64,000 nucleotides of DNA from Marinobacter iranensis. GTDB lineage: Bacteria; Pseudomonadota; Gammaproteobacteria; Pseudomonadales; Oleiphilaceae. Below, piece by piece: positions 7,535 to 46,082 of the stretch. Numbering within the stretch: the stretch's first letter is position 1; each line of letters opens with the position of its first letter. A program made the translations under genes and the position numbers. The notes beneath the pieces were generated by a model, which searched no databases, had not been told where the DNA came from, and saw only the letters and a program-made list of their open reading frames with translations. The stretch is taken from positions 1 to 64,000 of the forward strand of contig NZ_JANCMW010000016.1 of the NCBI RefSeq assembly GCF_029207565.1. Direction: 5' to 3'.

Positions 7535-8383
7535 ATGGCTGAGCAGAGTTCGAGTGATCTTCTGACGACCGGGGTGCATGCTGACATTGAAGCCATTGAG
7601 GAAGCGTTTGTCGCCCAATGGACGAATTACGGACATGCGCCCGGCGGGGTGTTCCACGAGGAGGATGACCTGGTATGGACAGAAGCGCCTGTGCCTCAGC
7701 TTCCATACAACGCCGTACTCCGCACTCGCCTGGGGAGCGATGCCGCAGAGCGCATCGAGCAGGTGCTGAGCCACTTTCACCAGCGCGCCGTGGAATTTCT
7801 GTGGCTGGTCCACCCCACGGCGCAGCCCGCCAACCTGGCGGAACAACTCACCGCACAGGGGTTGTCGCTCGTGGAGAACGCCACCGGCATGGCGCTGGAC
7901 CTCACGACATGGAGCGCCCCTTCAGGCACGCCGCCGGGGCCCATTGCTTATCGCGAGGTGAAGGATCAAGAGAGCTTGCGAGACTTCGAAGAGCTAATGG
8001 CCGCGTACTGGGAACTCCCCTTAAAGAGTCGCCCGTATGCGTTTGAGATGAACCGGTCCGCGTACACGTTGGGCGGTCGCGGGGTCCGGTGGGTCGCTTA
8101 CCATGATAACCAGCCGGTCGGCAAAGCCTATTTGTCGTACCTTGGCTGCGAAGACACGGCAGCCATCTTTGGGGTTTACGTGCGGCCAAATGCGCGAGGC
8201 TATGGGATTGCAAGCACGCTCACCACGTTGGCCATCTCTCGGGCCGTTGCGCTCGGACGGAAGCGCGTAGTCCTCCACTCCTCGGAGATGGCGGTTAAGA
8301 TCTACCAGCGGCTGGGGTTCATCGGGTGCTGTACTATGCCTATGTACGCAACCACCGCTCTGCACGGCATTCAGCCTATATAG
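7535..8383 (+). CDS. GNAT family N-acetyltransferase, two-domain form
   Basis: The 282-residue protein has a C-terminal GNAT domain: AIFGVYVRPNARGYGIASTL is the acetyl-CoA-binding strand and loop, followed by SRAVALGRKRVVLHSSEMAV and the IYQRLGF motif typical of the family. The N-terminal half (about 130 residues) looks like a diverged second GNAT-like domain. A TATACT sequence at 7493-7498 could serve as -10 element and GGGAGA precedes the ATG. The substrate is unknown. Confidence 0.8.
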   Translation: MAEQSSSDLLTTGVHADIEAIEEAFVAQWTNYGHAPGGVFHEEDDLVWTEAPVPQLPYNAVLRTRLGSDAAERIEQVLSHFHQRAVEFLWLVHPTAQPANLAEQLTAQGLSLVENATGMALDLTTWSAPSGTPPGPIAYREVKDQESLRDFEELMAAYWELPLKSRPYAFEMNRSAYTLGGRGVRWVAYHDNQPVGKAYLSYLGCEDTAAIFGVYVRPNARGYGIASTLTTLAISRAVALGRKRVVLHSSEMAVKIYQRLGFIGCCTMPMYATTALHGIQPI

Positions 8384-43379: not shown

Positions 43380-45272
<1,893 letters not shown>

Positions 45273-45323
45273 GGCTTGTTTTGTCTCCTGCTGTTTTTTG
45301 CTTCGGTGGAGCGGCATGGGCAC

Positions 45324-45410
45324 GAAGCCCTGTCCAAAACACGCTGTGAATACGTCCGTGTACGCTCGGCTCCGCCATCCATGGCTCCGCACGGTTTTGG
45401 ACAGGGCTTC
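45324..45410 (-). repeat. Hairpin element A: conserved core between perfect 17-bp arms
   Basis: Bases 45324-45340 and 45394-45410 are perfect 17-bp inverted arms (GAAGCCCTGTCCAAAAC and its complement), extendable with a few mismatches. The 53-base interior, read on the minus strand, contains CGTGCGGAGCCATGGATGGC, then GGAGCCGAGCG and ends ACAGCGT. It closely matches the interior of element B but the arms do not. It lies in the leader or promoter region of htpG. Confidence 0.85.
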
Positions 45411-45462
45411 GCACCCACGCCACCCGACTGTTGAGTAATATCGATTCCTGCACGGAGCATGG

Positions 45463-45574
45463 GCGAGCAGTTGGGGATGGGTTTACGAAACCGTGCGGAG
45501 CCATGGATGGCGGAGCCCGAGCCGCACAGGGACGTCCCGAGGCGTGTTTCGTAAACCCATCCCCAACTGCTCGC
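45463..45574 (+). repeat. Hairpin element B: conserved core between perfect 29-bp arms
   Basis: Bases 45463-45491 and 45546-45574 are perfect 29-bp inverted arms, beginning GCGAGCAGTTGGGGATGGGT. The 54-base interior on the plus strand starts CGTGCGGAGCCATGGATGGC, continues GGAGCCCGAGC and ends AGGCGT, and includes the palindrome GGGACGTCCC. It matches the element A interior in the opposite orientation. Both cores are bounded by AAAC on one side and GTTT on the other. About 50 bases separate the two elements. Confidence 0.85.
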
Positions 45575-45647
45575 CTGCACCAATGCCTGAGTTGTTAGAA
45601 CCAGAAATGGGGTTAGACCGGGGCATTTCAACCCCGCACAGATGAAT

Positions 45648-46082
45648 TCAGTCTTCCAGCAGGAAGTGCGCCCGCGCCGTGGCGATGGGCTGGGAGCGGG
45701 ATTTTTGCCAAGCGGTGATCATCACGTTGGCCACGCGGTTGCCCTGGCGGGTGAGCTGGCACTCGGCGAAGGTTTCGCGGTTGAGGCCCGCGCGCAGGTA
45801 ATCCAGGGAGAAATCCACGATGCGGGGCATGCGCAGGGTTTCCTGGGACATCATCAGGTAGATAACGGCAGACAGTTCCATGAAGCCACCAATCACCCCA
45901 CCGTGAATGGCCGGAAGGATCGGGTTGCCGAGGTTCTCTTCCTTACTCGGCAAACGGAAAATCAGGTCGTCGCCGAAGCGGTCGCATTCCAGGCCGATAA
46001 ATCGCGCGTAGGGAATGCTTTCCAGCATCCGTGAGAAATCACCGGTTTCCTGGGTGTAGCGGAGAATTTCCGGGTTGGTCAT
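45648..46082 (-). CDS. PaaI-type hotdog-fold thioesterase
   Basis: The 144-residue protein shows the hotdog fold of PaaI/YdiI thioesterases: NPILPAIHGGVIGGFMELSA contains the HGG motif and active-site region, followed by RIVDFSLDYLRAGLNRETFA and TARAHFLLED. It should hydrolyse an acyl-CoA, substrate unknown. Its start overlaps the stop of the next hotdog gene by four bases, so the two are coupled. After its stop lies a weak hairpin (GGGGTT/AACCCC, 45605-45640), then the hairpin elements. Confidence 0.85.
   Translation of the reverse strand: MTNPEILRYTQETGDFSRMLESIPYARFIGLECDRFGDDLIFRLPSKEENLGNPILPAIHGGVIGGFMELSAVIYLMMSQETLRMPRIVDFSLDYLRAGLNRETFAECQLTRQGNRVANVMITAWQKSRSQPIATARAHFLLED

What the first reader, a model, noticed from the sequence alone, without database searches (positions are those of the whole stretch)
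45324..45574. Two hairpins with a shared core but unrelated, perfectly paired arms
Element A (45324-45410) has 17-bp perfect arms and element B (45463-45574) has 29-bp perfect arms. The arms are unrelated in sequence except for the innermost AAAC/GTTT. The 53-54 base interiors are closely similar when one is read on the opposite strand (CGTGCGGAGCCATGGATGGC in both). Ordinary palindromic repeats conserve the stem and vary the loop; here the reverse holds. Two explanations fit: a mobile core that inserts inside existing hairpins, or an RNA whose core is displayed on a stem that needs only to pair. I do not know a named family with this layout.
Basis: partly seen in the sequence, partly recalled or inferred. 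Interest (0 to 1): 0.8.

Follow-up and report, generated by a model that had tools for sequence, protein, structure and literature searches.

The report
Repeated CsrA-type RNA hairpins in Marinobacter
The two hairpins belong to a family of over a hundred scattered copies in this marine bacterium, each holding up two small loops of the shape that the RNA-binding regulator CsrA grips, on a stem that keeps its pairing while its letters drift.

Summary
Confirmed: 45313-45421 (minus strand) and 45462-45575 (plus strand) are two copies of one element, a 28-30 bp stem around a 53/54-nt core. The genome (a Marinobacter relative) holds at least 133 copies, 131 with 19-35 bp arms. Copies with near-identical cores have outer arms no more alike than other copies. 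Orthologues upstream of htpG (24 and 13 relatives) show why: cores stay 92-95% identical, arms drift about like flanking DNA, but both sides change together (21 of 28 stem pairs; 98.3% of cells paired, 80.8% shuffled). G-U outnumbers A-C 52:8 (38:0 at the htpG sites), so the strand that folds is the one whose loops read ANGGAN. 124 of 131 copies carry exactly two such loops, starts 22-25 nt apart, each closed by C-G: the published high-affinity CsrA/RsmE site. Rfam TwoAYGGAY (CsrB clan, already proposed to bind CsrA) matches 57 places at E<=10, none over its cut-off (42.1 against 43). So: a TwoAYGGAY-like RNA element, new in copy number and in its drifting arms. CsrA binding and transcription are inferred.

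The parts
45313..45421 (-). Element A as a whole, 28-bp stem and 53-nt core, same strand as htpG and just upstream of its start codon
   Evidence: (R1 109.9 bits)
45394..45421 (-). Element A, 5' arm of the stem (element strand)
45313..45340 (-). Element A, 3' arm of the stem (element strand); three of 28 pairs are G-U on the minus strand, the rest Watson-Crick
45341..45393 (-). Element A, 53-nt core
45374..45385 (-). Element A, hairpin 1 GCC-AUGGAU-GGC, ANGGAN loop closed by C-G
45351..45362 (-). Element A, hairpin 2 UAC-ACGGAC-GUA, ANGGAN loop closed by C-G
   Evidence: the minimum-energy fold puts a hairpin here in a shifted register (GCGU/ACGU)
45462..45575 (+). Element B as a whole, 30-bp perfect stem and 54-nt core
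   Evidence: RF01731 31.7 bits, below its cut-off; R1 108.7 bits
45462..45491 (+). Element B, 5' arm
45546..45575 (+). Element B, 3' arm
45492..45545 (+). Element B, 54-nt core
45500..45511 (+). Element B, hairpin 1 GCC-AUGGAU-GGC
   Evidence: not in the plus-strand minimum-energy fold
45527..45534 (+). Element B, second site CAGGGACG (loop AGGGAC closed by C-G; only about 2 bp of stem here)
45422..45461 (.). Spacer between the two divergently oriented copies; no sigma-70-like promoter or intrinsic terminator pattern in 45200-45700
43383..45272 (-). htpG, gene downstream of element A on the same strand
   Evidence: NF003555, above cut-off
45648..46082 (-). Thioesterase-like gene, other neighbour of the pair
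   Evidence: NF008675 and TIGR00369, both below their curated cut-offs

Best explanation
The two hairpins are copies of a dispersed RNA element related to TwoAYGGAY. Read as RNA, on the minus strand for A and the plus strand for B, a long stem lifts a core carrying two short hairpins whose loops are ANGGAN, each sitting directly on a C-G pair. This is the published high-affinity recognition site of the RNA-binding regulator CsrA/RsmE, twice, at a spacing one CsrA dimer can bridge. The stem acts as scaffold: selection asks only that it pair, so its letters drift in a paired way while the loops stay fixed. When a transcript runs through a copy (5' leader, 3' UTR, or an RNA of its own), the copy would hold one CsrA dimer; together more than 130 copies could act as local CsrA docking sites or as a spread-out decoy pool. 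Shown: copy number, strand-specific folding, paired drift of the stem, fixed loops, a csrA gene in the genome. Inferred: transcription, CsrA binding, regulatory effect.
For: At least 133 copies in the genome, 131 with 19-35 bp arms. Inner 24 pairs of 131 copies: 97.0% Watson-Crick, G-U 52 against A-C 8 and 34 others of 3144 cells (two-sided binomial for 52 of 60, 5e-9). Orthologous site A upstream of htpG, 24 copies: WC 639, GU 26, AC 0, other 7; site B, 13 copies: WC 349, GU 12, AC 0, other 3. On 23 site-A orthologues: 21 of 28 stem pairs changed on both sides, 98.3% of cells paired against 80.8% in shuffles and at most 44.8% when slid (the seven core pairs never vary and say nothing). Cores 92-95% identical where flanks are 64-89% and arms 61-76% identical. 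124 of 131 copies have exactly two CANGGANG sites, starts 22-25 nt apart in all 124; 2 have three and 5 have one; closing pair C-G in 124 of 124 for both hairpins, which the search word fixes, while the next pair outward, which it does not fix, is paired in 124 of 124 with three or four pair types. At site A loop 1 is invariant and loop 2 varies only at the two N positions of ANGGAN. CsrA consensus and bridging range from PMC4005645 and PMC7652899 (passages). RF01731 shares clan CL00106 with CsrB and was proposed to bind CsrA (PMC4333381, passages). One csrA gene present.
Against: No transcript, binding or phenotype data. Orientation relative to neighbouring genes is not consistent: downstream gene in sense for 63 of 133, upstream gene in sense for 78 of 133, unlike a dedicated leader element. 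No promoter or terminator pattern around the window pair. Single-sequence minimum-energy folds show hairpin 1 of A, hairpin 2 of A only in a shifted register that pairs part of the GGA, and neither hairpin of B on its plus strand; B's hairpin 2 has only about two pairs. No RF01731 match in the genome reaches the gathering score (best 42.1 against 43). PMC7652899 notes that CsrA-selected hairpins mostly had four or fewer pairs and that very stable structure might be a disadvantage, so the long stem is not explained by CsrA alone. The G-U bias would also appear if a single DNA strand folded during mobility. The arm boundaries were placed by a score that favours G-U over A-C, which can inflate the ratio somewhat.
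Confidence: 0.65

Rival explanations
1. A selfish, miniature mobile element (REP/MITE-like) whose single-stranded DNA hairpin, not its RNA, is recognised, for example by a Y1 transposase; the fixed loops would be the recognition site.
For: High and variable copy number in the genus (3 to 131); 132 of 133 copies outside called genes; no fixed orientation to genes; close pairs all divergent, 19 of 19, as inverted REP pairs can be (recalled); G-U bias also fits a folded DNA strand. Empty sites without any trace (e.g. L217, L218 at pgk-fba, L212 at ahcY-metK) could be sites never filled.
Against: Of the two Y1 genes found one has a different palindrome, GTAGGTCGGATTAGCG/CTAATCCGAC, on both sides, and its nearest copy of this element is 5.4 kb away; the other lies on a contig with no listed copy. 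At the htpG, pgk-fba and L143 sites many copies are shared between species, and I recognised no recent insertion. The conserved letters are those of the CsrA site.
Confidence: 0.2
2. A mobile core that inserts into pre-existing hairpins.
For: 28 pairs of copies with at least 99% identical cores have outer-arm identity 0.39, within the 0.37-0.42 of other classes. In L210 and L211 a different core lies within similar outer arms at the ahcY-metK site. Core-less hairpins exist: L257 has a perfect 14-bp palindrome with a 2-nt loop; L074 and L076 have shorter ones.
Against: Orthologous copies keep their site while arms drift in place, which explains the same lack of linkage. Several core-less sites keep unequal arm stubs, e.g. 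L075, L204 and L214, L261 and L262, as deletions would leave. No core-less palindrome with full-length arms was seen in the sites read.
Confidence: 0.08
3. Bidirectional transcription terminators or mRNA 3'-end stabilisers whose loop is incidental.
For: Long GC-rich stems; copies between convergent neighbours (33) exceed those between divergent ones (18).
Against: Little U-tract: T fraction 0.14 in the 12 nt after the stem with 0 of 131 copies having at least 6 T; on the other strand 0.30 with 13 of 131. Terminator scan of the window pair empty. It would not explain fixed ANGGAN loops while stem letters drift.
Confidence: 0.07

Closest known systems
TwoAYGGAY RNA (Rfam RF01731, clan CL00106)
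   Same: Two hairpins with GGA-type loops in a core on an external stem of low sequence conservation; found in Gammaproteobacteria; several genomes of the class reach 11 matches with only 11 candidates scored
   Different: No copy in this genome passes the gathering score (best 42.1 against 43). In two genomes with above-threshold members (G228, G216) the arms are largely shared between copies, whereas here they are not. By my reading the second loop there is mostly one base shorter (ACGAY or AGGAY); here it is ANGGAN
CsrB/CsrC/RsmX/RsmY/RsmZ CsrA-sequestering sRNAs
   Same: GGA-in-loop hairpins matching the CsrA/RsmE high-affinity consensus (PMC4005645, passages); CsrB and TwoAYGGAY share an Rfam clan
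   Different: Those are one to a few sRNA genes (recalled), RsmZ with at least five GGA motifs (PMC4005645); here two sites per copy and more than 130 copies, with no recognisable promoter or terminator at the window pair
REP/BIME palindromes with RAYT transposases
   Same: Small intergenic palindromes, many copies, paired in inverted orientation
   Different: Conserved core with drifting stem rather than conserved stem (REP features recalled); the Y1 gene with flanking repeats in this genome goes with another palindrome

Membership tests
TwoAYGGAY (RF01731) | Score at or above the Rfam gathering score (43 bits) | tested here: not met
   57 matches at E<=10 in the genome, best 42.1 bits, 0 over the cut-off
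TwoAYGGAY (RF01731) | Two terminal loops AYGGAY | tested here: inconclusive
   124 of 131 copies have exactly two CANGGANG loops; loop position 2 is often G, sometimes A, rather than Y
TwoAYGGAY (RF01731) | External stem poorly conserved in sequence | tested here: met
   feature as described in PMC4333381
TwoAYGGAY (RF01731) | Two tandem G-A motifs in one stem (as reported in PMC4333381) | tested here: inconclusive
   Hairpin 1 positions 4-6: A-G 51, G-G 47, G-A 52 of 124 copies; in the rest these positions pair or mismatch otherwise
CsrA-sequestering sRNA | ANGGAN hexaloops directly on a closing pair | tested here: met
   against PMC4005645
CsrA-sequestering sRNA | Two sites at a spacing a CsrA dimer can bridge (10-63 nt) | tested here: met
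   starts 22-25 nt apart in 124 of 124 copies with exactly two sites; 15 and 23 in the 2 copies with three; PMC7652899
CsrA-sequestering sRNA | A csrA gene in the same genome | tested here: met
CsrA-sequestering sRNA | Expression as RNA and binding to CsrA | not testable with these tools
   no RNA-seq or binding data
CsrA-sequestering sRNA | Own promoter and intrinsic terminator | tested here: not met
   simple sigma-70 and terminator scan of window 45200-45700 found none; other copies were not scanned for promoters
REP/RAYT | Transposase gene flanked by copies of the element | tested here: not met
   the Y1 locus on C110 has another palindrome on both sides; C143 holds no listed copy
REP/RAYT | Conserved foot tetranucleotide (GTAG-like, recalled) | not tested
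   not examined

The most novel reading that the evidence does not exclude
A bacterial genome carries a CsrA antagonist not only as one or a few sRNA genes but as a scattered pool of over 130 small hairpins (about 260 high-affinity sites) spread through its intergenic regions and, where looked at, shared at the same sites by many Marinobacter species, so that transcription across the genome titrates CsrA; the stems are free to drift as long as they pair.
Probability: 0.3. Interest if true: 0.85.

Novelty: new variant of a known kind. Interest (0 to 1): 0.62.

Why it matters
If the loops bind CsrA, this is the highest count of paired high-affinity CsrA sites per genome that I know of (recalled, not searched exhaustively), and it would link a high-copy intergenic repeat to a global regulator. 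It gives the TwoAYGGAY family, listed in 2010 and without a tested function in the papers I saw, a tractable host genus with many natural variants, and a natural experiment on how a long stem evolves when only pairing matters. Scans for CsrA targets by GGA motif in such genomes would have to mask this repeat.

Tried and rejected
Mobile core in empty palindromes: looked for core-less sites in the 80 htpG loci (78 were sent to print and the middle of the output was cut from view), in 20 relatives at ahcY-metK and pgk-fba and in 8 relatives (nine stretches, two of them from one genome) at five intergenic sites. Result: several sites keep unequal arm stubs (L075, L204, L214, L261, L262), one keeps a perfect 14-bp core-less palindrome (L257), L074 and L076 keep short hairpins, two hold another core (L210, L211), and others show no trace and cannot be judged (for example L208 and L212 at ahcY-metK, L217-L219 at pgk-fba, L263 at three sites). 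In-place flipping of the core: at the htpG site eight loci (L071, L080, L088, L090, L091, L110, L119, L135) carry a minus-oriented copy near the usual place; in the four printed (L071, L080, L119, L135) arms and flanks differ too; at one site (L261 against own) the two copies look swapped as a unit, which I read as inversion of the pair, not tested further. Arms made by inverted duplication of the target: no case recognised; not tested systematically. Terminator: rejected mainly on the lack of a U-tract. The microRNA and snoRNA Rfam matches are below their gathering scores and were set aside. Literature: the listings (titles and abstract starts) show no paper on this repeat in Marinobacter; PMC5864184 and PMC9788540 (passages) describe CsrA-related sRNAs of other marine bacteria. 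PMC2864571, PMC4333381, PMC11701678, PMC7652899 and PMC4005645 were also seen only in passages. Rows dropped: 142 matches minus 6 opposite-strand duplicates and 3 weak ones gave 133; 131 of these had arms of at least 19 bp. From one search's 77 matches I used 37 for (plus the 2 window copies), leaving out copies in opposite orientation at the site, copies elsewhere in the loci, and partial, lower-scoring and opposite-strand matches. One search dropped L094 (site A) and L065 (site B) for shifted register; one search used 23 of 25 site-A copies (without L094 and L111). On checking, an earlier wording that core-less sites mostly look like deletions was too strong; the odds of the mobile-core rival were raised from 0.06 to 0.08 for that.

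Full report
What is there. The window lies in a genome of 4.69 Mb in 444 contigs; its closest htpG relatives are Marinobacter records. Between a thioesterase-like gene and htpG sit two hairpins. Element A, read on the minus strand, is 45313-45421: a 28-bp stem (25 Watson-Crick and 3 G-U pairs) around a 53-nt core. Element B, on the plus strand, is 45462-45575: a 30-bp perfect stem around a 54-nt core. A 30-nt stretch matches perfectly between them in inverted orientation. Chance is excluded.

A family, not a pair. The word GCCATGGATGGC occurs 67 times in the genome (reversed control 2). A covariance model R1 built from 29 copies found 142 matches at E<=1, of which I count 133 distinct copies (only 150 of 1859 candidates were scored, so this is a lower bound). 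131 have arms of 19-35 bp. 132 of 133 do not overlap a called gene (my own simple gene caller). R1 matches occur in all 18 same-genus relatives (3 to 129 matches; own 131 in that call) and in 3 of 10 genomes of other genera there, with 26 candidates scored per genome, in 50 of 145 genomes and 36 of 91 genera of the order, own genus included. Copies within 400 bp of each other are all divergent: 19 of 19.

Arms and cores. Pairs of copies with at least 99% identical cores (28 pairs) have outer-14 arm identity 0.39, against 0.37-0.42 for the other classes; the inner 10 are more alike. This alone would fit a moving core. The orthologous comparison explains it otherwise: in relatives, copies lie at the same place upstream of htpG. 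I compared 25 copies at site A and 14 at site B, window included. For flank identity 0.70-0.85 at site A (106 pairs of sequences), arms are 65% and cores 93% identical; of changed arm pairs 880 are Watson-Crick to Watson-Crick, 181 involve G-U and 55 are mismatches. These counts include L094, whose register is shifted by one, and for site B L065, shifted by two, which inflates the double changes. On a separate alignment of 23 site-A copies without L094, 21 of 28 stem pairs show changes on both sides, 98.3% of cells pair (shuffled mean 80.8%, slid at most 44.8%), and no shuffle of 500 reaches the observed covariation. So the arms drift in place at about the pace of the flanks while pairing is kept: a stem that needs only to pair.

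Which strand and which molecule. In the inner 24 pairs of 131 copies there are 52 G-U, 8 A-C and 34 other non-Watson-Crick cells of 3144; at the two htpG sites 38 G-U, 0 A-C and 10 others of 1036. A G-U pair on one strand is an A-C pair on the other, so the fold that matters is on the strand carrying the ANGGAN loops. RNA is the simplest reading; a folded single DNA strand during mobility would give the same bias and is kept as a rival.

The core. 124 of 131 copies have exactly two CANGGANG sites, starts 22-25 nt apart; 5 have one and 2 have three. The closing C-G is part of the search word; the next pair outward, which is not, pairs in 124 of 124 copies for both hairpins with several pair types, and part of the copies carry an A-G/G-G/G-A internal loop in hairpin 1. 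Subfamilies differ in the stem of hairpin 1 while the loop stays ANGGAN. At htpG site A loop 1 is AUGGAU in all 23 and loop 2 varies only at the N positions. PMC4005645 (passages) defines the high-affinity CsrA/RsmE site as an ANGGAX hexaloop directly on a stem; PMC7652899 (passages) gives 10-63 nt as the bridging range of one dimer. The genome has one csrA match.

Known relatives. Rfam RF01731 TwoAYGGAY matches element B at 31.7 bits and 57 places in the genome at E<=10, best 42.1, none above 43. TwoAYGGAY shares clan CL00106 with CsrB. PMC2864571 (passage) lists it from human gut, Gammaproteobacteria and Clostridiales; PMC4333381 (passages) proposed that it binds CsrA and noted an external stem not well conserved. 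In the class, 14 of 229 genomes have a match and 11 an above-threshold one; in two of these genomes (G228, G216) the arms are largely shared between copies. So the Marinobacter element looks and probably works like TwoAYGGAY, but by Rfam's own threshold it is not a member.

Gain and loss. At pgk-fba R1 matches 17 of 21 genomes, 16 of them in one orientation; in L203 and L214 an insert breaks the element. Some core-less sites keep unequal arm stubs (L075; L204 and L214; L261 and L262), as deletion between short repeats would leave. Others show no trace and cannot be judged, and L257 keeps a perfect 14-bp palindrome without core, which fits either a deletion or an unfilled hairpin. In L210 and L211 similar outer arms hold a different core. 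My sample is a few sites in up to 20 genomes, and I have not explained how the copies multiplied.

Against my reading. There is no transcription or binding evidence. Orientation to genes is not consistent. The window pair has no promoter or terminator pattern. Minimum-energy folds place hairpin 2 of A in a shifted register and show neither hairpin of B on its plus strand. These are why the whole explanation is given 0.65 and the distributed-sponge reading 0.3.

Noticed in passing
L203 around 7705-7726 and its ahcY-metK copy, L214 around 7706-7727: An insert of roughly 80-95 bp, itself full of small hairpins (begins GTGAGGCAAGCGTTTATGAAGC in two of them), sits inside the loop of hairpin 2 in three copies; a second small mobile repeat may target this loop.
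   Followed up: partly
L210:15003-15018 and L211:14815-14830 (ahcY-metK): Outer arms like those of other species hold a different core (contains CATCGCCTGTCTGAGC, no ANGGAN loops); the word was found in no other of the 271 loci held.
   Followed up: partly
L271 (own C110, around 415633-415977): A Y1 transposase gene with the palindromic repeat GTAGGTCGGATTAGCG / CTAATCCGAC on both sides, a likely REP-RAYT pair; the repeat also lies between some divergent element pairs.
   Followed up: partly
own genome, 19 close pairs, e.g. C76:45313-/45464+: All 19 pairs of copies within 400 bp are divergent (minus then plus); this is far from random orientation and is unexplained.
   Followed up: partly
L143:359-749 against L261 and L257: At one site the two copies of a pair appear swapped between species, as if the whole intergenic pair had inverted.
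   Followed up: no
3' side of the stem, many copies: A C-rich then A-rich stretch (often CACCAAAG) follows the 3' arm, and ACTCC-like words often precede the 5' arm; the element may extend beyond the stem.
   Followed up: no
relatives G003, G010, G011, G015: Four same-genus genomes have only 3 to 12 R1 matches while the other fourteen have 42 to 129; loss or a diverged form not tested.
   Followed up: no
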